Shown: piece by piece, positions 4,255 to 62,274 of the stretch
How the letters are laid out: every line of letters starts with the position of its first letter
Numbering within the stretch: position 1 is the first letter of the stretch
Assembly: GCF_004193775.1 (NCBI RefSeq)
Contig: NC_041002.1
Location: 36,491,112 to 36,555,111, forward strand
Direction of reading: 5' to 3'
DNA length: 64,000 nt
Source: Glycine soja
Taxonomy: Eukaryota; Streptophyta; Magnoliopsida; Fabales; Fabaceae
Translations under genes and position numbers: made by a program
The notes under the pieces: generated by a model
What the model saw: only the letters and a program-made list of their open reading frames with translations
The model's database searches: none
Told to the model about the DNA's origin: nothing

Positions 4255-5400
4255 TGAAATTCTGATACCAGGGGACAGATGTCGTACAGGATGTCACGAC
4301 ATCACGCTTCAGAACATGCAGATTGTATGTGTCCGTATGAACAGATTAAACAAGTAAATAACACAAGAGAATTGTTAACCCAGTTCGGTGCACCTCACCT
4401 ACATCTGGGGGCTACCAAGCCAGGGAGGAAATCCACTCTCAATAGTGTTAGTTCAAGGTCTAACAACCCCTGTTTACAACCTTCTCACCTAACCACTACC
4501 CGTGCGATCTCTACCTAAGACCCAATCTTAGATATGAGAACCTCTGCTCACTCCCTCTCACTCACACTCCCGTGTTTACAATTAATTCAAAGACACTCCA
4601 GAGATCAACTCTGTACAAAAGAGATCAACTCTACACACTAGAGATCAACTCTAGACACAAGAGATCAACTCTACACACATAGGTCCAACACTTGATGTTA
4701 AGGTACCATCAAGGTGGCTCACAAAAGACTCAAGTCCCAAAACTCACAAAATAACTCTTCAATCCCGGACTTGGTACAGAACTCGTGCAGCCTCCATGAT
4801 TATATAGCCGTGTACGATTCTGGGCTGCAAGTTCTTGATGCTGGAGGAGATCTATCTTCTTCCTGAAAATCTGCAGTTAAAGAACTAAAAGATAACTTTT
4901 GATCTTTTAGTTTGAATCTTTAATCTTTAATCTTTAATCCCTGAACGAACTCTTCTACTTTGAAATTCGAACTATAATGATCTTTTAATTCGTTCCTAAA
5001 GATAGATCTTCTTATCTCTTGCTAACTGCACAATAATCTGTTAAAGATATAACAGATTTATATGTCCAGTATTTTCGGGCCAGATGTCAGGACATCGTAT
5101 CCGACATCTTGGATCCTGCAGCTTCAATGCTTCACTTGACTTTTATCTTGCATTGTACAGCACTTCCAGTATTCTCGAGCAGGATGTCAGGACATTGTAT
5201 CCGACATCGTGGATCCTGCAACTTCAATTCTTCATTTACCATTTTATCTTGCCTTGTACATTGTGCAGCCCGATCTTATTCCTTGACATAACGTTGGACA
5301 TCATGTGCAGCAACTCCAGCTTTCCTTCATTGTCTAAGTGCTTATGTTTTAACAAAATCTTAGCCAACCTTTTTAAACTCAGTAGTGCTAAGCACTAACA
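4255..5400 (-). repeat. SIRE1 E1 5' LTR
   Basis: This 1146-base LTR runs on the minus strand from TGTTAGTGCTTAGC (at 5400) to TTTCA (at 4255), with standard TG...CA ends. A TATA-like TATATAAT lies at about 4799-4806. Two internal repeats stand out: four copies of a roughly 20-base unit containing GAGATCAACTCTA at about 4598-4678, and a duplicated block of about 100 bases with GATGTC...GACATC motifs at about 5065-5235. The base after 5400 is SIRE1 gag of another copy, so the LTR marks an insertion point. The 3' LTR lies outside the window. Confidence 0.92.
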
Positions 5401-11230: not shown

Positions 11231-11535
11231 TGGTAATCAATTACCATTCGTGGGTAATCGATTACAGGGTTTAAAAATAGAGACATGATGTTAAGTAGCT
11301 TCTGGTAATCGATTACCAATTGTGTGTAATCGATTACACAGTATGATAGGGCACTGGTAATCGATTACCAGTTGTGTGTAATCGATTACATAGTGTTACC
11401 TGCTACTGGTAATCGATTACCATTTATGTGTAATCGATTACTCAGTGTAACTTTTAGATTCCACTGTGCAAAGGCTGTGTAATTCATTTTTGGGCACTGG
11501 TAATCGATTACATACTTTGGTAATCGATTACCAGA
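11231..11535. repeat. Array of paired AATCGATT palindromes
   Basis: About ten palindromes of two forms alternate: GGTAATCGATTACC and TGTAATCGATTACA. Members of a pair are mostly 4 to 9 bases apart, and pairs repeat at roughly 70-80 base intervals. A few copies carry one change, such as AATCAATT. The same two forms occur in pairs in several Copia LTRs in this window. Confidence 0.85.
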
Positions 11536-13965: not shown

Positions 13966-14981
13966 TATTAGACAAAAGGAGGGGGGGGGGGGTTTAATTG
14001 GGTTTTTAAAATTTTTTTATCCATCCTTTGAAAACAAAAGGTTTCTAATGTTAGTTCATATTGAAAAATAGTTCTAAGCTCAAAATATAAATATAAGTTG
14101 CTAAGAGTGAAAATGCAAATAATTATGGGGAAAAAAATCTTTTATAGTTCAAGGATTTTTGTTTAAAAGATAGTTATTTACTTGAAACCATTATGATAAA
14201 CAACAAGTTTAGTTTAGTTGTTGGTTAGAAAAGGTTGTTAGGTTCTGTGTTTGAATGAAAATAGAACTAGATCTGTGCAAGGGAAAATAAAAATAGAGTG
14301 AAGAAGAGTGCACAATTTTTTTTATACTAGTTCACCCCAACCTTGGGCTACGTCCAATTCTCACCCTTCAAGATGAGATTTCACTAACACAACTAGTCAT
14401 AACTGGACCAGTAACCATTGGATTTTAACACCTGTCCAGTTTCTCAACTAGATTTAAATCCTAGCCTCAACTAGATCAACAAGACCATTGGATTTTAGCT
14501 TTGCTAGCCACTTGTGGACATACTACATAAAAGAGGATCTGTATTTTACTACACTACAAATCTTCACCTTGAAAGAGGGATTTCCCTTAGGAATTAAATA
14601 TATCACTTCTATCTAAAGAATATTACATATTTGTAAGCACAATATAGAAGTGGGTTACTCTTATAGTGGATTAAAGCAGAAAATGAAGATTTCTCACTTA
14701 GAGATCTTTCTCTAGATGTTGTTTTGGAATGCTTCAACATGTTCATCACGCCCTTCGAAAATGCCTCATAAAGCTCCTAAGAAGACCGTTGAGGTGGGCT
14801 TCACTCAACTAACAAGCTTTTGGAGCAAGCAGGTACACTTTACATTTGTCATGAAGTGACAACATGTAGAGCCATTCTGAGAAAACTTTTTGATGGACAT
14901 TTTGAAGAACCATTGGAATAGTCACTCTGATGTATGCTGAGAACGAATCCTTACTTGATGAATTTAGTTGATGAAGTTCAG
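13966..14981 (-). repeat. Sirevirus-type LTR, part 1 (probably of element X)
   Basis: A run of about 12 G at 13981-13992 followed by TTTAATTGG resembles the LTR edge of E3 (37485 on). The block near 14322 (ATACTAGTTCACCCCAACCTTGGGC) is shared with the E3 LTRs at 23867 and 37681. No primer-binding site is seen between it and the RT remnant, consistent with a deletion. The solo LTR interrupts it at 14981. Its exact ends are uncertain. Confidence 0.6.
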
Positions 14982-43754: not shown

Positions 43755-43766
43755 GCTCTAATACCA
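43755..43766 (-). other. E5 primer-binding site
   Basis: Minus TGGTATTAGAGC, one change from TGGTATCAGAGC, lies two bases from the LTR start at 43769. Confidence 0.85.
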
Positions 43767-43768
43767 CT

Positions 43769-44547
43769 TGTTAGACAAGTGGCCTTAGTTATCTTAAGAA
43801 GGGGGGGGGGGTTGAATTAAGATACAAAAACTATTCCCCAATTAAAAATTTCACTCTCTCTTTTTGGATTAATAATGCACCCTTAATATGAATTACTCAA
43901 AAGACAATTCAAAATAAACTTCTTTAAAGCAAAAGATAAATAGCAATAAATAAAAGAAGTTTAAGGGAAGAGAGAATGCAAACTCAGTTTTTATACTGGT
44001 TCGGCCACACCTTGTGCCTACGTCCAGCCCCCAAGCAACCCGCTTGAGATTTCCACTATCTTGTAAAATGCCTTTTACAAAGTCTGAACCACACAGGGAC
44101 AACCCTTCCCTTTTGTTCAGAAATCCTTACATCTTAAGAGACCCTCGGTCTCTTAACCAAATCTCTTTGAATAAAAAGAAGAAGAAGAATTCTCTCTTTA
44201 AAAAAAAGATATTACAATTGAAGATCAATCAAGATTCCTTATTGAATATGCAAGTGTTTGGCCAAGGAATATTTTTGAGAGGATAAGACATTTTGGTTAT
44301 GAGAGGATAAGACAATTTAGTTAAGAAAAAACTCTCTTAGGAATTTCGTGTCCCAAGTCATCTATTTATAGGCCTTTGATGGCCATTCAAAAATCTCCTG
44401 AACAGATGTGACTCTTGGGAGTTATTTTCTGAAGAGTTGTGACTCTTGGAAGTTATTTTCTAAAGAGTTGTGACTCTTGACTTGGATCAAACTTGAGAAG
44501 CGCTTATCTTTGGCATCATCAAAACTTCAATCATATATGCTTCTACA
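43769..44547 (-). repeat. E5 5' LTR
   Basis: This 779-base copy has the same content as the 3' LTR. A G-run is longer here (about 43799-43811). The perfect stem TTAAGAGACC/GGTCTCTTAA is at 44134-44156 and the TATA box at 44364-44370. Confidence 0.92.
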
Positions 44548-51004: not shown

Positions 51005-51889
51005 TGTAGAAGCAAGCTTCATGATTATGAATCAAGTTGATTCAAGTAGTTTTGATGATGACAAAAAGCCCAAAGAATCATGTCAAGATTGAGTCAACAA
51101 GTTCAAGATCAAAATTAATTTCAAGTTTCATGAGAAGAAATCAAGAAGATTCAAGAATCAAGTGAAGTTTGATTTCAAGATTCAAGAGAAGAAATCAAGA
51201 AGACTTCACAAAGGAAGTATTGAAAAGATTTTTCAAAAAATAAACATAGCACAATTTTGTTTTTCAAAAGAGTTTTTCTCAAAATTTTCTAAGTTACCAG
51301 AGTTTTTACTCTCTGGTAATCAATTACCAGTTTCCTATAATCGATTACCAGTGGAAAAGTTTGATTTCAAAAGCTTTAAACTGAATTTGAAACGTTCCAA
51401 TTTATTTTTAAATGGTGTAATCAATTACAATATATTGGTAATCGATTATCAGTGTATCTGAATGTTGAAATTCAAATTCAATTGTGAAGAGTCACATCTT
51501 TTCATAAAATGCTTTGTGTAATCGATTACATGGTTTTGGTAATCGATTACCAGTGACAAGTTTTGAATAAAAATCAAGAGATGTAACTCTTCCAATGGTT
51601 TCAGGTTTTTCTCAAGGTTATAACTCTTCCAATGGTTTTCTTGACTAGACATGAAGAGTCTATAAAAGTAAGACCTTGACTTTCATTTTAAGTACTTGAT
51701 ATAACTTTTTATATACACTTTTACAACCTTTGAATCTCTTTGAACATCTTTTTGAACTTCTTCTTCTTCTTCTTCCTTTGCCAAAAGCTTTCTGAGTTTT
51801 CTGATTTCCAAACCTTGTTCTTTCACAGAAAACAAAAGTGTGCTATATCTTTTCATTCTCTTCTCCCTTTGCCAAAAATAATTCGACAA

Positions 51890-52133
51890 GGACTAATTGC
51901 CTGAATTCTTTTTGTGTCTCTCTTCTCCCTTTTCCAAAAGAATGAAGGACTGACCGCCTGAATTCTTTTGTGTCTCCCTTCTCCCTTTTCAATGAATTCA
52001 AAACGACACAGTCTGAGAATTCTTTTGATTCTTCCCTTTCCCTTAAACAAAAGATTTCAAAGGGCTAATCGCCTGAGATATCTTTTGTTTCCCCTTCACA
52101 AAGTTTCAAAGGACTAACCGCCTGAGAACTTTG
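51890..52133 (+). ncRNA. E6 5' LTR stem-loop array I (5 units)
   Basis: Five imperfect repeats, each with a loop core like AAGGACTAACCGCCTGA between complementary arms. The last two are clean: AAACAAAAGAT with ATCTTTTGTTT (52045-52090) and ACAAAGTT with AACTTTGT (52098-52134). The right LTR has seven units. It lies 200-480 bases after the TATA box, so it should be transcribed. The RNA structure is inferred from sequence only. Confidence 0.75.
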
Positions 52134-52167
52134 TCTTAACACATTGGAGGCTACATCCTTCATAGTA

Positions 52168-52328
52168 CAAGTAGAGGGTACATCTACTTGGGTTGTTGTA
52201 ACTGAGAACAAGAGAGGGTACATCTCTTGTGGATCAGTTCAAGTGGAGGGTACATCCACTTGGTTTTTCAAAGAGAACAAGGGAGGGTACATCCCTTGTG
52301 GATCTTTGCTTGTAAATGTTTTTACAAG
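52168..52328 (+). ncRNA. E6 5' LTR stem-loop array II, constant GGGTACA loop
   Basis: Four perfect 8-base-pair stems share the loop GGGTACA. The arms are CAAGTAGA/TCTACTTG (52168-52190), ACAAGAGA/TCTCTTGT (52208-52230), CAAGTGGA/TCCACTTG (52240-52262) and ACAAGGGA/TCCCTTGT (52277-52299). A fifth stem, CTTGTAAA/TTTACAAG with loop TGTT, is at 52309-52328. A decayed member lies at 52143-52160. Confidence 0.85.
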
Positions 52329-52530
52329 GTTGAAAAGAAATCTCAAGGACCGCAGGTCGCTTGGGGACTGGATGTAGGCACGGGTTGTTGCTGAACTAGT
52401 ATAAAACTCTTGTGTTTGTCTTCTTCATCCCTACATTCTTTAATTTCCGTTGTGCACTTTAATTATCGCTTTTACTTTTGGTTAAGTTTCAATTATTGTT
52501 CTTGTAGAAAGTTTAACAACTTCAAGATTC

Positions 52531-54624
52531 ATGGCCTCTTTAAATTCTTTGTTTTTCAAAAGTATTTTCAGGAATAGGTTATTTCAAGATCATGATAAAG
52601 ACCAAGTCAACTTGTGTCTCATGAAAAAATCTCATGACAACAACAAAGAAGAATCTGTAAGGAAGAAGTGGTACATCGACAGTGGATGTTCCAAGCATAT
52701 GACAGGAGATGTATCCAAATTCACAACCATTTCCCCCAAGAAAAGTGGACACGCTACAAATGGCGACAACAACAAAGGCAAAATCATTGGAGTCAGTAAA
52801 ATAGGTAGGAGTTCCTCTACTCCTATTGAAAATGTGTTACTTGTAGAAGGTTTAAAGCATAGCCTATTATTAAGTGTTAGTCAATTATGTGATAGAGGAT
52901 ATAAAGTATCTTTTGATTCTGAAAAATGTGTTATCAAGCATGAGCATGACAAAGATATTGAGCATATATGTTTCAGAGGAAATAATGTTTATATGATTGA
53001 TTTAAAACAAAAATCTGAAAATGATAGATGCTTTCTAAGTAAACATAATGATCCTTGGTTATGGCATAAGAGAATTGCTCACATTAACATGGATCATCTA
53101 AATAGATTAATTTCAAAAGATCTAGTTATTGGTTTACCAAAATTAAAATTTGAAAAAGATAAGTTATGTGATGCATGCCAAAAAGGTAAACAAACAAAAG
53201 TATTTTTTAAATCTAAAAATATTGTTTCTACCACTCAACCATTACAATTATTGCACATGGATTTGTTTGGACCATCTAGGGTCATGAGTTTTGGTGGAAG
53301 TTACTATGCATTAGAAATTGTTGATGACTATTCTAGGTATACTTGGACTTTATTTCTTACTCATAAAAGTGATGCATTTCATGCATTTAGAAGACTTGCC
53401 AAAGTCATCCAAAACAAGAAGAATCTTAAAATTATGTCCATCAGAAGTGATCATGGAGGTGAATTTGAAAACAATGATTTTGAAATGTTTTGTGATGAAC
53501 ATGGCATAGAACACAACTTTTCTACACCTAGGACACCCAAACAAAATGGAGTAGTAGAAAGGAAAAGTAGAGCCTTAGAAGAAATTGCTAGAACTCTTTT
53601 AAATGACACACCACTGCCAAAATATTTTTGGGCAGAAGCAGTCAACACCGCATGTTATATTATGAATAGAGCCTTAATAAGACCCATTCTTAAGAAAACC
53701 GCATATGAACTTTTTAACAATAGAAAACCAAACATTGCTCATTTACATGTTTTTGGATGTAAATGTTTTGTCCTAAACAATGGAAAAGAAAGCCTAGGAA
53801 AATTTGATGCTAAGGCGGATAAGGGTATCTTTCTTGGCTATTCCCTACATAGCAAAGCCTTTAGGATATACAACAAAAGAACCATTACAATTGAGGAATC
53901 AATACATGTTACTTTTGATGAAACTAATATTACCTCTCCGAGAAAGGAATTTCTTGATGATATTGCAGATTCTTTGGAAGATATGCACAATCAAGAAACG
54001 AATCTAAAAAGAAAGAGAAATGAAGAAAATAAGGATGTTCAAGATGACATTGCTCAAGAAAATGATGATCTTCCCAAAGAATGGAAAACCTCAAGAAATC
54101 ATCCTCTTGACAACATCATCGGAGATATCTCAAAAGGGGTAACAACTAGACACTCTCTTAAAGATTTATGCAATAACATGGCATTTGTTTCGTTAATAGA
54201 ACCTAAAAACCTTAAGGAAGCCATTATAGATAATCATTGGATAGTAGCTATGCAAGAGGAATTAAATCAATTTGAAAGAAATGATGTATGGGAATTAGTA
54301 GAGAAACCTTCAAATTATCCAATCATAGGAACTAAGTGGGTATTCAGAAACAAATTGGATGAAAATGGTATAGTAATTAGAAATAAAGTTAGACTGGTAG
54401 CAAAAGGATATAACCAAGAAGAAGGTATAGACTATGAAGAAACCTTTGCACCCGTAGCCAGATTAGAAGCCATTAGAATGCTTTTAGCCTATGCATCTAT
54501 TATGAATTTTAAACTATATCAAATGGATGTTAAGAGTGCTTTCTTAAATGGTCTAATTCAAAAGGAGGTATATGTAGAACAACCTCCAGGGTTTGAAGAC
54601 TCACAAAAGTTAGACCATGTCTAA
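52531..54624 (+). CDS. pol: E6 gag stub-protease-integrase-RT polyprotein
   Basis: A 697-codon frame. About 8 residues of the gag start (MASLNSLF) run on into a late gag segment ([14 protein letters not shown]), so nearly all of gag is gone, yet the frame is kept. Then come the protease [12 protein letters not shown] (DSG near residue 49), the integrase zinc region [13 protein letters not shown] and [10 protein letters not shown], and the catalytic D (HMDLFGPS, near 242), D (SDHGGEF, near 305) and E (NGVVERKS, near 341), all present. RT begins [14 protein letters not shown] near 585 and runs to [11 protein letters not shown], where a TAA (54622-54624) stops it. Integrase looks intact; no gag and no complete RT. 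Confidence 0.9.
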
Positions 54625-55736
54625 AGATTAAAGAAAACACTCTATGGTTTAAAACAAGCACCTAGGGCTTGGTATGAAAGATTAAGTAAATTTATTTTAG
54701 AAAGAATTTCACTCGAGGGAAGGTAGATACCACCTTATTCATAAAAAAGAAAGATAAAGATATCTTACTAGTACAAATTTATGTTGATGATATAATTTTT
54801 GGATCTACTAATGAATCTTTGTGCAAGGAGTTTTCTATTGATATGCAAAGTAAGTTTGAGATGTCCATGATGGGTGAGTTAAATTACTTTCTTGGACTAC
54901 AAATCAAACAAACAAATGATGGGATCTTTGTCAACCAAGCAAAATATTGCAAGGAACTCATTAAGAGATTTGGAATGGAAAACTCAAAACACTTGGCTAC
55001 TCCTATGAGCACCAATTTTTATCTTGACAAAGATGAATCCGGTCAACCCGTTGATGCAAAGCAATACAAAGGTATGATTGGATCTCTACTTTACTTATCT
55101 GCAAGTAGGCCATATATTATGTTTAGTGTATGCATGTGTGCAAGATTTCAATCAAATCCAAAGTTTGCACATCTAATGGCAGTAAAAAGAATCATAAGAT
55201 ATCTATTAGGAACAGTTAACTTAGGATTATGGTACCCTATGAATTCTTTATGCAATTTAGTAGGATATTCAGATTCGGATTTTGCTAGATCAAAAATAGA
55301 TAGGAAAAGCACTAGTGGCACATGTCAATTCACAGGGTCTGCTCTTGTTTCTTGGAATAGCAAGAAGCAAAATAGTGTAGCATTATCCACAGCAGAAGCA
55401 GAATATATTTCTGCTGGTAGTTGTTGTGCACAAATTTTATGGATGAAACAACAACTATCTGATTATGGAATTGTATTAGATCACATTCACATAAAATGTG
55501 ATAACACAAGTGCCATAAACATATCTAAAAATCCAGTCCTTCACTCTAGAACCAAGGATATAGAAATTAGGCATCATTTTATTAGAGATCATGTTCTAAA
55601 AGGTAACGTTGTTTTAGAATTTGTAGATACTAAAAATCAACTTGCAGACATCTTCACAAAACCACTAAACATAGATTCTTTCTACACTATTAGAAGAGAA
55701 TTAGGACTGCTAGATGCTAGTGACTTATCTAAATGA
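54625..55736 (+). pseudogene. pol: E6 RT C-terminal part and RNase H
   Basis: The RT reading continues after the stop ([20 protein letters not shown]). A one-base loss near 54700 shifts the frame, and [10 protein letters not shown] follows at 54780. The final frame (54819-55736) carries [28 protein letters not shown], RNase H (LVGYSDSDFARSKIDRKSTSG, AEAEYISAGSCCAQ) and FVDTKNQLADIFTKPL to LLDASDLSK. Apart from the two breaks it is well kept. Confidence 0.9.
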
Positions 55737-56203
55737 TTTATATTTTTATTATTTTACTTTGATTTCTAGCCGTGTATTTGGCTATATTATTATGACATTT
55801 GAACATTTAATATTTCTTTTAATATTTGCTTAGTATGAGTGAACATTTATGAATTCTGTTATATGACTATGTGGTTTACATTTTAATTTGGTTTCATGCC
55901 TTGCTTCATGATTAGTTTAGAATCCTTTATGATTGATTTACAACGGATGCTATGTGTATGTTGTTTTTAAATCATGTATGTTTTATATTTCTTACACACT
56001 TTGGCTTTTTGTCGATGCCAAAGAGGGAGAGAAAATAGGGATTAAATCAAGAACTCATATAATTAATTAATTTAATTTCAAGTGAAGCTTAAACTCAAAA
56101 ACAAAGGGGGAGAATATGGAGAATTAAGTGAGTGATCGACTAGGAAAAAGAATGTGTATGTGTTTCTTGATTTCAGGTTTGTCATCATCAAAAAGAGGGA
56201 GAT
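55737..56203 (+). other. E6 3' non-coding region and polypurine tract
   Basis: There is no envelope-like frame. Polypurine tracts are GCCAAAGAGGGAGAG near 56016, AAAGGGGGAGAA near 56104 and AAAAAGAGGGAGAT at 56190-56203 beside the LTR. Confidence 0.75.
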
Positions 56204-57051
56204 TGTAGAAGCAAGCTTCATGATGATGAATCATAGTTGATTCAAGTAGTTTTGATGATGACAAAAAGCCCAAAGAATGATTTCAAGATTGGGTCAACAA
56301 GTTCAATCAAGATTCAAGTATCAACAGAAGTTTGATTTCAAGATTCAAGTAAAGATGAATTCAAGATTCAAGAGAAGAAATCAAGAAGACTTTACAAGGG
56401 AAGTATTGAAAAGATTTTTCAAAAAACAAACATAGCACAGTTTTGTTTTTCAAAAGAGTTTTTCTCAAATTTTCTAAGTTACCAGATTTTTTACTCTCTG
56501 GTAATCGATTACCAGTTTCCTGTAATCGATTACCAGTGGCAAAGTTTGATTTCAAAAAGTTTTTAACTAAATTTGCAACGTTCCAATTGATTTCAAAATG
56601 GTGTAATCGATTACAAGATATTGGTAATCGATTACTAGTGTATCTGAACGTTGAAATTCAAAATCAATTGTGAAGAGTCATATCCTTTCATAAAAAGCTT
56701 TGTGTAATTGATTACATGGTTTTGGTAATCGATTACCAGTGACAAGTTTTGAATAAAAATCAAGAGATGTAACTCTTCCAATGGTTTCAGGTTTTTCTCA
56801 AGGTTATAACTCTTCCAATGATTTTTCTTGACCAGACATGAAGAGTCTATAAAAGTAAGACCTTGACTTGCATTTAAATAACTTTTTTAATATATTCTTT
56901 TACAACCTTTAAATCTCTTTCAACATTTTCTTGAACTTGTTCTTCTTCTTCCTTCTCCAAAAGCTTTTTGAGTTTTCTGGTTTCCAAACTTTGTTCTTTC
57001 ACAGAAAACAAAAGTGTGCTATTCATCTTTTTCATTCTCTTCTCCCTTTGC

Positions 57052-57431
57052 CAAAAAGAATTCGCCAAGGACTAACTGCCTGAATTCTTTTTGTGTTTCT
57101 CTTATCCCTTCTCCAAAAGAACAAAGGACTAACCGCCTGAATTCTTTTGTGTCTCTCTTCTCCCTTTGCCAAAAAGATTTCGACAAGGGCTAACCGCTTG
57201 AATTCTTTTTGTGTCTCTCTTCTCCCTTTTCCAAAAGAACAAAGGACTAACCGCCTGAATTCTTTTGTGTCTCCCTTCTCCCTTTTCAAAGAATTCAAAA
57301 CGACACAGTATGAGAATTCTTTTGATTCTTCCCTTTCCCTTAAACAAAAGATTTCAAAGGACTAACCGCCTGAGATATCTTTTGTTTCCCCTTCACAAAG
57401 TTTCAAAGGACAAACCGCCTGAGAACTTTGT
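57052..57431 (+). ncRNA. E6 3' LTR stem-loop array I (7 units)
   Basis: Stems in order: CAAAAAGAATTC/GAATTCTTTTTG (57052-57093, 12 perfect pairs); CAAAAGAA/TTCTTTTG (57114-57149); CAAAAAGATTTC/GAATTCTTTTTG (57170-57211, one mismatch); CAAAAGAA/TTCTTTTG (57232-57267); TCAAAGAATTC/GAATTCTTTTGA (57286-57325, one bulge); AAACAAAAGAT/ATCTTTTGTTT (57342-57387, 11 pairs); ACAAAGTT/AACTTTGT (57395-57431). Loops of 15-24 bases keep the core AAGGACTAACCGCCTGA, except the fifth. Arms differ between units but remain complementary. Confidence 0.85.
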
Positions 57432-57436
57432 CTTAA

Positions 57437-57624
57437 CACATTGGAGGGTACATCCTTTGTGGTACAAGTAGAGGGTACATCTACTTGGGTTGTTGTAACT
57501 GAGAACAAGAGAGGGTACATCTCTTGTGGATCAGTTCAAGTGGAGGGTACATCCACTTGGTTGTTCAAAGAGAACAAGGAAGGTACATCCCTTGTGGATC
57601 TTTGCTTGTAAAGGTTTTTACAAG
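57437..57624 (+). ncRNA. E6 3' LTR stem-loop array II
   Basis: The same five stems as in the 5' LTR appear at 57465-57487, 57505-57527, 57537-57559, 57574-57595 (one base lost in the arm/loop) and 57605-57624 (loop GGTT). A sixth, at 57438-57460, has arms ACATTGGA/TCCTTTGT with six of eight pairs and loop GGGTACA. Confidence 0.85.
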
Positions 57625-57935
57625 GTTGAAAAGAAATCTCAAGGACCGCAGGACGCTTGGGAACTGGATGTAGGCACGAGTTGTTGCCGAACCAGTATAA
57701 AATTCTTGTGTTTGTCTTCTTCTTCCCTACACTCTTTAATTTCCGCTGTGCACTTTAATTATTGCTTTTACTTTTGGTTAAGTTTCTATTTTTGTTCTTT
57801 ACTTTCCTTACATTATAGTAAAAGCCTAATTGAATCTAGTAACATTAAGAAGGATAGATTTTTAATTAGTAAAGGTTCATTAATAATTAATTCAACCCCC
57901 CCTTCTTAATTATTTCGAGGCCACTTGATCAAACA

Positions 57936-58335
57936 CAAGCTAATTATCCTTTTTGAGTGACTCATGTTAGCCCTAAGTTTACTTTAATTGTTGATCTTTA
58001 CAAAACTTGTCTTTTCTGGATACACTTAAGCAAACTCATTAGTAGGCATAAACTTAGAAGTCTTATTATTTGTGTTCAAAAGGTTTTTCATAATTAAAAC
58101 ACAAAGGATTTTGGACTCAACACTAATAACTGGCCCAAGTCGTATATGATTAACTGATAATGTGAAGACCAGGCCTTAATGGACCAACATTCCTTGAAAG
58201 CTAACAACCAAGAAACTTCTTGGTTTACATACATCTTCAAAGCTGAAAGTCAACCTTAATGGTAACTTTTCAGTATTTTCCTTTATATTGTTTACTTAAT
58301 GATTTTTTTTACATATTCAATTATTCATTTTATAG
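57936..58335. other. Spacer before an exon-like segment
   Basis: AT-rich DNA. The first half (TTTTTCATAATTAAAACACAAAGG near 58085) resembles Sirevirus LTR edges. The second half ends in a pyrimidine-rich run and TTTTATAG, a good splice acceptor. Confidence 0.4.
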
Positions 58336-58516: not shown

Positions 58517-59643
58517 TGATCGAGGCCGTACCCGAATCAAATAAACATTAAAATGCAGTAACTAAGAAGTGATCCTAGGTCGTTTCCCAACGAGCAACGA
58601 TACACCAAATCTTCATAACAGATAGTAGGAAATAGTAACAAATTGGGGGGGGGGGGGGTGGGGGGGGGTTGTTTGCTTTTGTAAATTAAACAGCGAGTAA
58701 AATTGAATTAGAAAATATCAGAATTAAAATACGTTTCTTCCCCTTGATTCATAAGCAAGTCTCTTATCCTAGGTTACGAGAGTTTATCCTTATTCAGTTC
58801 AACCACTTAATCCAACCCTAAATTAAATTACTAAGCGAAATTTAACATAAGGCATTCATTATGTGATTAAGCAACACATACACCAATTACTCATAAACGA
58901 TCATTAAGCATGAACATAAATTAAGCGTAGAGACAATTAATCAAGCACTAAGCATGCAAGAATTAATAGCAACAAATTCAGAGTAATTAGTGAAGAGGAA
59001 AAATTGAACAGAATTTAACAATAATAATAGAACCTCAAAGAGAACTATGCTTGATCCTCAAGAGAAAACAACATTGCGGACTTAGCCTTCCATTAATCAA
59101 TAGAGAATGAAATTATAGATTGAAGAACGAAATTTTATTGCTAAAACTAAAAGTCAGTATTGGAATTGCAAAAACGAAAATAAAGGAGAAAGAGAAGAGA
59201 AGCCTAAAACTAAAAACGAAAATAGGAGAGAGAGAAGAGAGAGAGAGCCTAAATTAGAACCTTGGTGTTGTTATATAGTTTTCCAGCCCCAAAGCTTACA
59301 AATCTGTTTTAAATCCAAGCCTATAAATAAAATAAAATCAAATCTAGATAAGATAAGATAAGATCTAGACGAAATAATATCTAGATGAGATCAAATCTAA
59401 ATAATATCTAGATAAGATAAGATCTAATTTTGTAGAATAAAATAGTCTACCCTCTTCAAGTCCAAGTCCAATTCTGGATTCAAGCCCAATGCTTCATTAA
59501 TTCCTGAAATTAGATTGAAAACATCAAATTAGCTGAATGGGCCCAAATAATAAAACTGCCTAATTAATTTGACAATTAAGAATAATCAGTACTTAAAATG
59601 GTGCAAAAAGGGTTAAGAAATAAGAGAAAATAATGGCACATCA
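58517..59643 (-). repeat. Athila-like Ty3 LTR, copy A
   Basis: On the plus strand it runs TGATCGAGGCCGTACCCG to AATAATGGCACATCA (1127 bases). It matches copy B at 60455 over its whole length. A G-run with one T is at about 58645-58668. A polypurine tract (minus TAAGTATGAGGGGTTT) at 59644-59659 shows that A is a 3' LTR on the minus strand. Confidence 0.8.
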
Positions 59644-60454
59644 AAACCCCTCATACTTAGCCTTTTGCACTCCTGGGCAAAATGAAATAAAGAACAAAAT
59701 CCAAGGATATCAAAGATAGACAAACAAAAACATTTACATATTTCTCAATGAACATCAAGGAATGAAAGGAATGGGTAACATCTAACATGAAGAGATCCAA
59801 AGAGTCAAGACATTTGTGAAAATCATCCAAGCAACCCAATCATGGCAAAATAGTTAATCAGCTCAATAATGAAAAGTGATAAAGCCTCACAAGATATACA
59901 CTTTATCTCTCAAGTGTCTAGGCTATTGTTTACTCTCGAAGCACCCATGAAAACAAACACCACATAGACTTGGCAAAATTCTAAAATTGACAAACACATG
60001 CACATGAGGATCAAAAGGTCTTTAAAGGTTGTAATGGGGCCAAGGACAAGGTAGGGAAAAAAGTATGGAATAAGTAGCTAAATCCCAAAGGAATAAGGGA
60101 GCAATGGGGAATAAGTGGAAATTAAGCACAAGTAGTAAACCCAAACCCTCTAATATCAACAAAATCAACCAAGGCTCTCAAATCAAGTCCTCATAACAAG
60201 ACTTCATTTATTCAACTTCACTTCTTTTCTTCTTCTTCTTCTTCTTCTTCTTTTTTTTTTGAATAGTACGAATTTGCAGAATTTGCAGCAACTGAATTTT
60301 TCTTTTTTTTCATTTCATTTTTTTTCCATTTTTTTAAACAGTACGAATTTGAAGATTAAAGCAAGAACTAGTCAATATATATATACATCAAGCATGGCCA
60401 AAATAAAACATTAAGCATGGCCAAAAATCATATCTTCCAATGAAACATACCCCT
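59644..60454 (-). other. Athila-like 3' internal region belonging to copy A
   Basis: 811 bases of non-coding DNA, including CTTCTTCTTCTT and T-rich runs near 60220-60340 and a short duplication (AAGCATGGCCAAAA at 60390 and 60412). No primer-binding site lies beside copy B, so A and B are probably not the two ends of one element. More likely B inserted here, in the 3' region of A. Confidence 0.55.
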
Positions 60455-61519
60455 TGATCGAGGTCGTACCCGAATCAAATAAATATTAAAATGTAGTAAC
60501 TAGGAAGTGATCCTAGGTCGTTTCCCAACGAGCAATGATACACCAAATGTTCATAACAGATAGTAGGAAATAGTAACAAAATGGGGGAGGGGGGGTTGTT
60601 TTCTTTTGTAAATTAAACAGCGAGTAAAATTGAATTAGAAATTATCAGAATTAAAATACGTTGCTTCCCCTTGATTCACAAGCAAGTCTCTTATCCTAGG
60701 TTGCGAGAATTTATCCTTTATCAGTTCAACCACTTAATCCAACCCTAAATTAAATTACTAAGAGAAATTTAACATAAAGCATTCATTATGTGATTAAGCA
60801 TCACACATACCAATTACTCATCAATGATCATTAAGCATGAACGTAAATTAAGCGCAGAGACAATTAATCAAGCACTAAGCATGCATGAATTAATAGCAAC
60901 AAATTCAGAGTAATTAGTGAAGAGGAAAAACTGAACAGAATTTAACAGTAATAATAGAACCTCAAAGAGAACTGTGCTTGATCCTCAAGAGAAAACAACG
61001 CTGCGGACTTAGCCTTCCATTAATCAAATAGAGAATGAAATTTTATTGATAAAACTAAAAGTCTGAACTGTAATTGTAAAAAACGAAAATAAAAGAGAAA
61101 GAGAAGAGAGACTAAAACTAAAAACGAAAAATAGAAGAGAGAGCGGAGAGCCCGCTAAACTAGAACCTTGGTGTTGTTATATAGTTTTTCAGCCCCAAAG
61201 CTTACAAATCTGTTTTAAATCCAAGCCCATAAGTAAAATCAAATCAAATCTAGATAAGATAAGATAAGATAAGATCTAATTTTGTAGAATAAGATAGTCT
61301 GCCCTCTTCAAGTCCAAGCCCAATTCTGGATTCAAGCCTAAGCCCAATTCTAGATTCAAGCCCAATGCTTCATTAATTCCTGAAATTAGATTAAAAACAT
61401 CAAATTAGTTGAATGGGCCCAAATAATAAAACTGCATCATAAATTTGACAATTAAGACTAATCAGTATTTAAAATGGTGCAAAAAGTGTTAAGAAATAGG
61501 AGAAAATAATGGCACATCA
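60455..61519 (-). repeat. Athila-like Ty3 LTR, copy B
   Basis: 1065 bases with the same termini as copy A. It lies downstream of the minus-strand pol at 62275-63991, so it is the 3' LTR of that element. CCCCT (60450-60454) is the expected half of a target duplication. Confidence 0.8.
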
Positions 61520-62274
61520 CCCCCCCCCCCCCCACCACACACACACACACTTATTCCCAAAACAATTCCATAGCACCAAAATTCCTTAAGGGTAAGGTGA
61601 TATCATGGTTTTTCACTTAAGGTTTGTAATTAGCTCAAAAACAAAGAAAGGGGAACATAGGCTCAAAGGGGCTATCAAAGGAATTAATTCAGGGTAGGTC
61701 CATTTGGCTAGAGGCTTATAAGAACAAAATTGCCTAAATCATTTCCAAATATGCATTTGAATTAGGAAGCATCAACAAGAATCAAGCCAAGGCTATTGTG
61801 CAAGCAATCAATGGGGCAAAACACACCAAAAGATTATGATGATGGATGGCTCAAATTCTCACAAAGGTAAACTTATCACTTTAAAATTGAGCTTTCAAAA
61901 CTATCATGACATGTAGATGAAAGCAAGGATTTCAAATCACAAAATGTCAAGAGACTTTTATTTTCAAAACAATTACCCATTTCTTGAACATATCCTATAA
62001 TTCAAAGAAAAATATGCAAAGTTGTACATGCAAACATAATTGATCTAAAATATTAAACTAGAAACCCAACAAAACAAAAAAATTTAACACAAACAAAACT
62101 AACAAAACTAGCAAAACCAAAACCAAAGAACACTCCCCCCCCCCCCCATACTTAAACAACACATTGTCCTCAATGTAGCATAATTAAAAGATTAAAAGCA
62201 ATTAAACCATCAAATAGAATCGGACAAATGTAATAAAAGTAAAGAAGGAGATAGGAAAAGAAAAACTCCCTAAG
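61520..62274 (-). other. Athila-like 3' non-coding region
   Basis: It starts with a C-run and a CA microsatellite (61519-61550) where a polypurine tract is expected. Near 62135-62185 another C-run with CATACTTAAACAACACATTGTCCTCAAT matches (minus strand) the GAGGACAATGTGTTGTTTAAG motif that follows integrase in Athila elements. Integrase and most of RNase H are missing between this motif and pol. Confidence 0.65.

What the first reader, a model, noticed from the sequence alone, without database searches (positions are those of the whole stretch)
57437..57624. Second stem-loop array with an invariant GGGTACA loop
Four perfect 8-bp stems in the 5' LTR (CAAGTAGA, ACAAGAGA, CAAGTGGA and ACAAGGGA with their complements) enclose the same seven-base loop. 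The arms differ at two to four positions, and each change is matched on the other side. A fifth stem with another loop follows directly. Seven constant loop bases with paired changes in the stem look like repeated protein-binding or RNA-kissing sites, possibly for gag binding, packaging, dimerisation or translation.
Basis: partly seen in the sequence, partly recalled or inferred. Interest (0 to 1): 0.9.

Follow-up and report, generated by a model that had tools for sequence, protein, structure and literature searches.

The report
Hairpin array in soybean retrotransposon LTR
A very common soybean retrotransposon carries five small hairpins with nearly the same seven-base loop in each long terminal repeat, probably folded in its RNA and perhaps used to recognise its own genome, although no function has been tested.

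Summary
At 57437-57624 (3' LTR) three GGGTACA hairpins are perfect and the fourth has decayed; all four are perfect in the 5' LTR copy, 52168-52299. Each array has five units, H0-H4, then H5 with another loop. The host is soybean-like; the core GAGGGTACATC occurs 29,095 times there against 725 for the reversed control. All 38 B-type arrays examined keep five units. Between duplicated units 5 of 22 stem pairs differ, all on both sides, and 0 of 19 loop or internal-loop bases. Across 32 copies two pairs have common compensatory states, but the number of such pairs does not exceed shuffles. A GC loop variant affects H0, H1, H3 together, never H2 or H4 (8 arrays). Related Sirevirus families carry one G-loop hairpin there. 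The array lies downstream of the likelier TATA box, so probably in transcribed R. Best reading: a structured RNA array, perhaps a multivalent Gag-binding or dimerisation site; that function is inferred. DNA palindromes are not excluded.

The parts
57437..57461 (+). H0, 3' LTR: CACA-UU-GGA-GGGTACA-UCC-UU-UGUG
   Evidence: sequence; fold; present in the aligned copies
57465..57487 (+). H1, 3' LTR: perfect 8-bp stem CAAGTAGA, loop GGGTACA
57497..57536 (+). H2, 3' LTR: outer stem AACTGA/TCAGTT, internal loop GA/GGA, inner stem ACAAGAGA, loop GGGTACA
57537..57559 (+). H3, 3' LTR: perfect 8-bp stem CAAGTGGA, loop GGGTACA
57566..57604 (+). H4, 3' LTR: outer stem CAAAGA/TCTTTG intact, inner hairpin decayed (one base lost, one changed)
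57605..57624 (+). H5, 3' LTR: CTTGTAAA-GGTT-TTTACAAG, another loop
57638..57696 (+). tail: CTCAAG...CTTGGG helix and ACTGG...CCAGT helix around the GTAGGC/GCCGAAC module
   Evidence: homologous helices in relatives
52140..52164 (+). H0, 5' LTR copy, decayed
52168..52190 (+). H1, 5' LTR copy, perfect
52200..52239 (+). H2, 5' LTR copy, perfect outer and inner stems
52240..52262 (+). H3, 5' LTR copy, perfect
52269..52308 (+). H4, 5' LTR copy, perfect outer and inner stems (ACAAGGGA)
52309..52328 (+). H5, 5' LTR copy
56847..56855 (+). TATA1 (CTATAAAAG), likelier promoter, about 590 bases upstream of H0
   Evidence: sequence; similar boxes in families A, C, D
57696..57701 (+). TATA2 (TATAAA) downstream of the array: possible second promoter or poly(A) element
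   Evidence: sequence
56204..57935 (+). 3' LTR of element B (the finding lies here)
51005..52503 (+). 5' LTR copy of element B, 3' part missing
57052..57430 (+). array 1: upstream hairpins with a constant longer loop around GGACTAACCGCCTGA; unit number varies between copies

Best explanation
The feature is a five-unit hairpin array in the probably transcribed R part of the LTR of a very abundant soybean Sirevirus-type (Ty1/copia) retrotransposon family. It most likely grew, by duplication of a two-hairpin unit, from a single G-loop hairpin that related families still carry in the same place. Stems stay paired while their sequence changes and the loop is nearly constant. Most likely it works as RNA: repeated loops as a multivalent binding site on the element's own RNA, recognised by the zinc-knuckle Gag for packaging and/or by loop-loop contact in RNA dimerisation. 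Shown: sequence, copy number, paired changes, place relative to the two TATA boxes, relatives. Inferred: start of transcription at TATA1, folding in cells, direction of growth, and Gag or RNA as the partner. The structured-array part alone I hold at about 0.7; with the binding and packaging role the whole is 0.3.
For: Between the duplicated units H1+H2 and H3+H4 of the 5' LTR, 5 of 22 stem pairs differ, 5 of 5 on both sides, and 0 of 19 loop or internal-loop bases (random coincidence of the five positions 1/26334, same call). Two pairs with common compensatory states in 32 copies; 22 double-changed cells against 8.9 in shuffles, 0 of 500. 50 of 50 listed places with H3's arms have the family loop or a near variant, 35 exactly; 2,295 places in all, reversed control 0. 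Five units in 38 of 38 B-type arrays (for 32, for 6), while array 1 has 2 to 6 units in the 30 array-bearing fetched loci. A GC loop variant in H0 (7 of 8), H1 (8 of 8) and H3 (6 of 8) but H2 and H4 (0 of 16): the same loop change in hairpins with different stems. Relatives A, C, D, L092, L093, L106 have one G-loop hairpin at the same place. A TATA-like box 298-617 bases upstream of H0 in 22 of 30 copies. ATG is scarce after TATA1 and not before it. Gag zinc knuckles in relatives A and C. In barley BARE, TATA1 RNA carries R and is packaged (passages of PMC3735527).
Against: Number of pairs with double changes not above shuffles: 3 vs 2.8 (272 of 500) and, in relatives, 4 vs 3.0 (179 of 500); the covariation term of the consensus fold is only -0.09 kcal/mol. 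Recent changes look neutral: at G-C pairs C>T that keep a wobble 31, G>A that break the pair 30. Rare changes equal in loops and spacers. U3 folds with a stronger z (-6.3) than the leader (-1.9). In full context some copies mispair: mean pair probability H1 0.19 (L080), 0.36 (L067), 0.0 (L085); H4 0.40 (L072), 0.45 (L088). Perfect inverted repeats fold on either strand and fit DNA-binding too. No start site was mapped; Benachenhou et al. estimate a very short R for their Sire set (passages of PMC3601003). Element B has no zinc knuckle in its remaining internal part. Ascertainment: 30 of the 38 arrays were chosen by an exact core match on one contig.
Confidence: 0.3

Rival explanations
1. DNA-level cis-regulatory palindromes: the array is a cluster of dyad-symmetric factor-binding sites like the repeated motifs (RM) described upstream of the TATA box of Sirevirus LTRs. 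TATA2 (57696) would be the promoter and the array part of U3.
For: Published RMs are palindromic, clustered and lie a short way upstream of a TATA box (PMC2829016 sections 9-11); here TATA2 lies about 90 bases after H4. Perfect inverted repeats serve DNA dimers as well.
Against: TATA1 lies upstream of the array and the GTAATCGATTAC palindromes, which resemble the RM of Tnd-1 (ACAATCGATTGT), lie only upstream of TATA1. ATG is scarce between TATA1 and the LTR end. The 7-base loop is better kept than the arms between units, whereas DNA dimer sites usually keep the arms (recalled). No CGG-CCG core.
Confidence: 0.25
2. Leader RNA structure acting on translation (scanning, shunting or a delay before gag) rather than on packaging.
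For: ATG-poor stretch after TATA1 in most LTRs, as expected if ribosomes scan it; strong hairpins.
Against: A constant loop is not needed for this, nor a fixed number of units. ATG depletion is weak in A 5' (65 of 300 shuffles) and B 5' (20 of 300).
Confidence: 0.15
3. No function: tandem duplication of a palindromic unit, with arms kept perfect by template-switch (quasi-palindrome) correction, carried along by an abundant family.
For: Other tandem duplications are common in these LTRs (118-bp duplication 57036-57271; array 1 unit number 2 to 6). Recent changes look neutral. Template switching can make matched changes without selection (recalled).
Against: Loop constant while arms change; five units in 38 of 38 arrays; same loop change in three hairpins with different stems; a related hairpin in other families.
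Confidence: 0.2
4. Source of hairpin-derived small RNAs that help the host silence the element, as proposed for maize Sirevirus palindromes.
For: In maize an excess of small RNAs maps to palindrome clusters of Sirevirus LTRs (passages of PMC10760457; PMC5311732).
Against: Stems of 8 to 14 bp are short for Dicer (recalled). No microRNA family reaches its gathering score. It would not explain a constant loop. No small-RNA data here.
Confidence: 0.1

Closest known systems
Palindromic repeated motifs (RM) of Sirevirus LTRs (Bousios et al. 2010, PMC2829016; maize follow-up Bousios et al. 2016, not held)
   Same: Several short dyad-symmetric units clustered in the LTR of a Sirevirus, near a TATA box, able to form hairpins
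   Different: Here the units lie downstream of the likelier TATA box, arms differ between units while a 7-base loop stays the same, and there is no CGG-CCG core. The GTAATCGATTAC palindromes upstream of TATA1 fit the published kind better
Tandem repeat entry at the soybean Rps1-k locus (PMC2330051, Table 4)
   Same: The printed 65-bp unit (2.3 copies, 135918-136076) contains this array's sequence on the reverse strand; the 61-bp unit at 136235-136365 matches array 1
   Different: Printed as a tandem repeat only; in the passages I saw it is not linked to an LTR, to hairpins or to a function
Retroviral and Ty1 packaging/dimerisation signals (Ty1: PMC8396678; MMTV purine loop: PMC8096270)
   Same: Stem-loops or palindromes near the 5' end of the genomic RNA; purine-rich loops as Gag contacts in MMTV (title and abstract start only)
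   Different: No binding, packaging or dimer data here; five units with one loop; the loops of relatives (AGGGTTG, AGGATTG) have no self-complementary core
BARE of barley, two TATA boxes with separate RNA pools (PMC3735527)
   Same: Two TATA-like boxes in the LTR, the first giving RNA with R
   Different: Transcripts were mapped in BARE; here not

Membership tests
Sirevirus (Ty1/copia) | copia-order pol domains | tested here: met
   gag_pre-integrs, rve, then RVT_2 in the B ORF 52531-54624; Retrotran_gag_2 in A and C
Sirevirus (Ty1/copia) | several polypurine tracts upstream of the 3' LTR | tested here: met
   3 in A, 3 in B, 2 in C within about 180 bases of the 3' LTR, up to 2 edits allowed
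Sirevirus (Ty1/copia) | LTR end CA, then A(T/G)TGG, then TATCAGAGC primer site | tested here: inconclusive
   C: AGTGG and TATTAGAGC (1 difference); A: AGGGG and TATCAAAGC (2 differences) (rule). In B this stretch is missing
[quoted passage not shown]
   57888-57907 in B, also A 5', C 5' and 3', and a variant in D (rule)
Sirevirus (Ty1/copia) | place in a reverse-transcriptase tree with named Sireviruses | not tested
   no named reference set was used
Bousios repeated motif (RM) | palindromic unit repeated at least eight times per element | tested here: inconclusive
   five units per LTR, palindromic arms; the published 3' LTR counts run from 3 to 14
Bousios repeated motif (RM) | CGG-CCG core (12 of 13 published) | tested here: not met
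   core is GA-GGGTACA-TC
Bousios repeated motif (RM) | upstream of the TATA box | tested here: inconclusive
   downstream of TATA1, upstream of TATA2; start site unknown
Packaging/dimerisation signal | lies in the 5' part of the genomic RNA | tested here: inconclusive
   so if transcription starts at TATA1; not mapped
Packaging/dimerisation signal | bound by Gag or needed for packaging or dimers | not testable with these tools
   needs bench work
Any curated RNA family (Rfam 15) | match at gathering score | tested here: not met
   5 weak matches in 51005-57940, none at its gathering score

The most novel reading that the evidence does not exclude
The LTR has two TATA boxes with the hairpin arrays between them, so only genome-length RNA started at TATA1 would carry the arrays. 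The five GNGUACA hairpins would be a fixed-number, two-class recognition code (H0/H1/H3 and H2/H4) by which Gag, or loop-loop contact, picks the replicating RNA out of the translated pool: a packaging signal of a plant copia element, visible in thousands of soybean copies.
Probability: 0.15. Interest if true: 0.78.

Novelty: new variant of a known kind. Interest (0 to 1): 0.5.

Why it matters
How plant LTR retrotransposons choose, pair and package their RNA is poorly known (my judgement). A compact, very abundant five-unit hairpin array with a nearly constant loop gives a candidate site that can be tested in vitro. It also shows that a repeat printed as an anonymous soybean tandem repeat is a patterned part of an LTR. 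The interest is held down because palindromic arrays in Sirevirus LTRs are already known and no function was shown.

Tried and rejected
IMG/VR pattern scan for the hairpin: 52 stretches, none with a perfect 7-bp stem, 14 of 52 with 6 of 7 pairs, judged chance. A pol query there found nothing. Rfam: nothing at gathering score. A wobble-versus-mismatch test for RNA-level selection gave no bias at G-C pairs. L112, fetched in the hope of seeing gag beside a B-type LTR, has no primer site after the LTR and no Pfam match in the 5 ORFs tried of 8 listed, so it tells nothing about gag. Pairing of the relatives' loop with the U5 polyC motif (GGGTTG/CAACCC in A and C, GGGTGA/TCACCC in D, read by eye) fails for the B loop, which keeps only GGGT/ACCC; a weak idea only. 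Kissing through the self-complementary GUAC of the loop is possible in B but the loops AGGGTTG and AGGATTG of relatives lack it; not claimed. One script on unit counts was wrong (cropping) and was redone, where L072, L081 and L084 were mislocated by the script; their five units are seen. L090 is a chance match and was left out of the alignment. Array L109, with fewer and different units, is not among the 38.

Full report
What is there. The window carries at least three copia-type elements (A, B, C) and one further LTR (D). Family B, the subject, has LTRs at 51005-52503 and 56204-57935 with pol ORFs between them on the + strand. The finding lies in the 3' LTR. Its array has units H0-H4 around the core GAGGGTACATC and then H5 with another loop. 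H1-H5 differ at 4 of 161 aligned columns between the two LTRs. In H2 and H4 an outer six-pair stem and a GA/GGA internal loop extend the hairpin.

Chance. In 1000 dinucleotide shuffles of each LTR none gave two perfect 8-bp stems with the same 7-base loop. The array folds more stably than 200 of 200 shuffles in both copies. But the longer leader stretch is only z -1.9 and U3, upstream of TATA1, is z -6.3, so stability alone does not single the array out. In the RNA context the B5 hairpins have pair probabilities of 0.95-0.99, B3 0.86-0.99, while among six other copies tested H1 falls to 0.0-0.36 in three and H4 to 0.40-0.45 in two.

Abundance. The core 11-mer occurs 29,095 times in the 1.01-Gb host assembly, against 725 for the reversed pattern. 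I fetched the 31 places that the 100 listed matches fall into; 30 hold the whole array and one is a chance match. They were chosen by an exact core match on the first part of one contig, which favours intact loops. At about 3.3 exact cores per array this suggests some eight to nine thousand arrays (my extrapolation). The host is soybean or a close relative: assembly size and a printed soybean tandem repeat at Rps1-k that is this array on the other strand (PMC2330051, passages only).

Paired change. Units H1+H2 and H3+H4 of the 5' LTR differ at 5 of 22 stem pairs, 5 of 5 changed on both sides, and at 0 of 19 loop or internal-loop bases. In 32 aligned copies 96.9% of stem cells pair, against 96.1% in column shuffles and 34-51% with slid partners. 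H3 has a pair that is A-U in 19 copies and U-A in 13, and the tail helix one that is G-C 20, A-U 8, G-U 3; a third pair has one case. Double-changed cells are 22 against 8.9 in shuffles (0 of 500), but the number of such pairs is 3 against 2.8, not significant. Recent changes look neutral: at G-C pairs C>T 31 and pair-breaking G>A 30. H5 has matched insertions in some copies (seen).

Loop. 2,295 genomic places have H3's two arms around any seven bases, the reversed control 0. In the 50 places listed the loop is GGGTACA 35 times, GCGTACA 7, GGATACA 3 and five other near variants once each. In the eight arrays with a GC loop variant, H0 has it in 7, H1 in 8, H3 in 6 (one more has GT), and H2 and H4 in 0 of 16; two of the eight, L117 and L118, were fetched because of their loops. 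So H0/H1/H3 and H2/H4 behave as two classes. Rare changes are as common in loops as in spacers, 1.20 per site, which speaks against loop constraint after insertion; shared states are rarer in loops (2 of 35 sites against 18 of 98).

Relatives. Families A, C and D of the window, and L092, L093 and L106 from 20 spaced 10-kb stretches, have in the same place before the same tail the hairpins P1, P2 and P3. P2 has a seven-base G-rich loop, AGGGTTG or AGGATTG; D differs and breaks several P2 pairs. RNAalifold on these eight sequences gives P1, P2 and the tail helices, not P3; 5 of 41 pairs have a double change, and the covariation term is only -0.09 kcal/mol. My drawn structure has 4 double-changed pairs against 3.0 in shuffles (179 of 500) and 7 double-changed cells against 3.6 (16 of 500). 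In the same 20 stretches four hold B-type arrays (L097, L103, L105, L108) and L109 is intermediate, with loops GGGTGCA, GGGTGCA and GGGTACA. I read this as growth from one hairpin to five; the direction is inferred.

Position. TATA1 (56847) is followed by an ATG-poor stretch. Observed against shuffled-mean ATG: B 3' 2/8.2, A 3' 4/9.0, C 2/7.0 and 2/7.1, D 4/9.2 (1 to 5 of 300 shuffles as low); B 5' 4/8.2 (20 of 300) and A 5' 9/12.0 (65 of 300) are weaker. None of the seven U3 segments is depleted. GTAATCGATTAC-like palindromes, similar to the published motif of Tnd-1, lie only upstream of TATA1, four to six per LTR in A, B and D and none in C. A TATA-like box lies 298-617 bases upstream of H0 in 22 of 30 copies; the fetched stretches end about 700 bases upstream at most. 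A second TATAAA lies after the array. In barley BARE two TATA boxes make separate RNA pools and only TATA1 RNA has R and is packaged (PMC3735527, passages). If this LTR works alike, only the packaged RNA would carry the array. Against a long R, Benachenhou et al. estimate a very short R for their Sire set (PMC3601003, passages).

Mechanism. Most likely the loops are repeated contact points on the element's RNA for Gag or for RNA pairing. Zinc knuckles exist in A (two) and C (one), none in what is left of B. A purine loop is a Gag packaging determinant in MMTV (PMC8096270, search listing only). This step is inference. Rivals are DNA palindromes, leader control of translation, no function, and a small-RNA source.

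Novelty. Seven paper searches gave the Sirevirus repeated-motif paper (abstract and sections 9-13 and 19 read) and the printed tandem repeat, and I saw no description of this array as hairpins; of the 50 papers with the core strings 20 were listed. The library lacks most subscription papers, and Bousios et al. 2016 is not held. LTR divergence (K2P) is 0.0455 for A, 0.0774 for B and 0.0440 for C, about 1.7 to 3.0 million years at the recalled rate of 1.3e-8. Only C has matching 5-bp target duplications, so B's two LTRs may not be sisters.

Noticed in passing
57052-57430 and about 51866-52133: Array 1: a second set of hairpins with changing stems around a constant longer loop (GGACTAACCGCCTGA), 2 to 6 units in the fetched copies; a 118-bp tandem duplication (57036-57271) in the 3' LTR.
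   Followed up: partly
43764-43782 (- strand): Perfect 8-bp inverted repeat CCACTTGT/ACAAGTGG that straddles the LTR end and the primer-site junction of element C.
   Followed up: no
11254-11531: Nine exact GTAATCGATTAC palindromes in 278 bases, outside any LTR that I recognised.
   Followed up: no
58517-59650 and 60455-61526: Two direct repeats of about 1.1 kb, about 90-94% alike, start to start about 1.9 kb apart: possibly a small LTR element or a tandem duplication.
   Followed up: no
about 50945-49877 (- strand): LTR D of another Sirevirus-like family, next to the insertion point of element B, with an unusual P2 hairpin.
   Followed up: partly
14321-14354 (- strand): A divergent match to the LTR tail motif, perhaps a further old LTR.
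   Followed up: no
L109, - strand, about 4720-4970: Intermediate array with loops GGGTGCA, GGGTGCA and GGGTACA and a different first hairpin, a possible step between one and five hairpins.
   Followed up: partly
52504-52530: Element B has lost the end of its 5' LTR, the primer site and gag; what remains starts near the protease-like domain of pol.
   Followed up: partly
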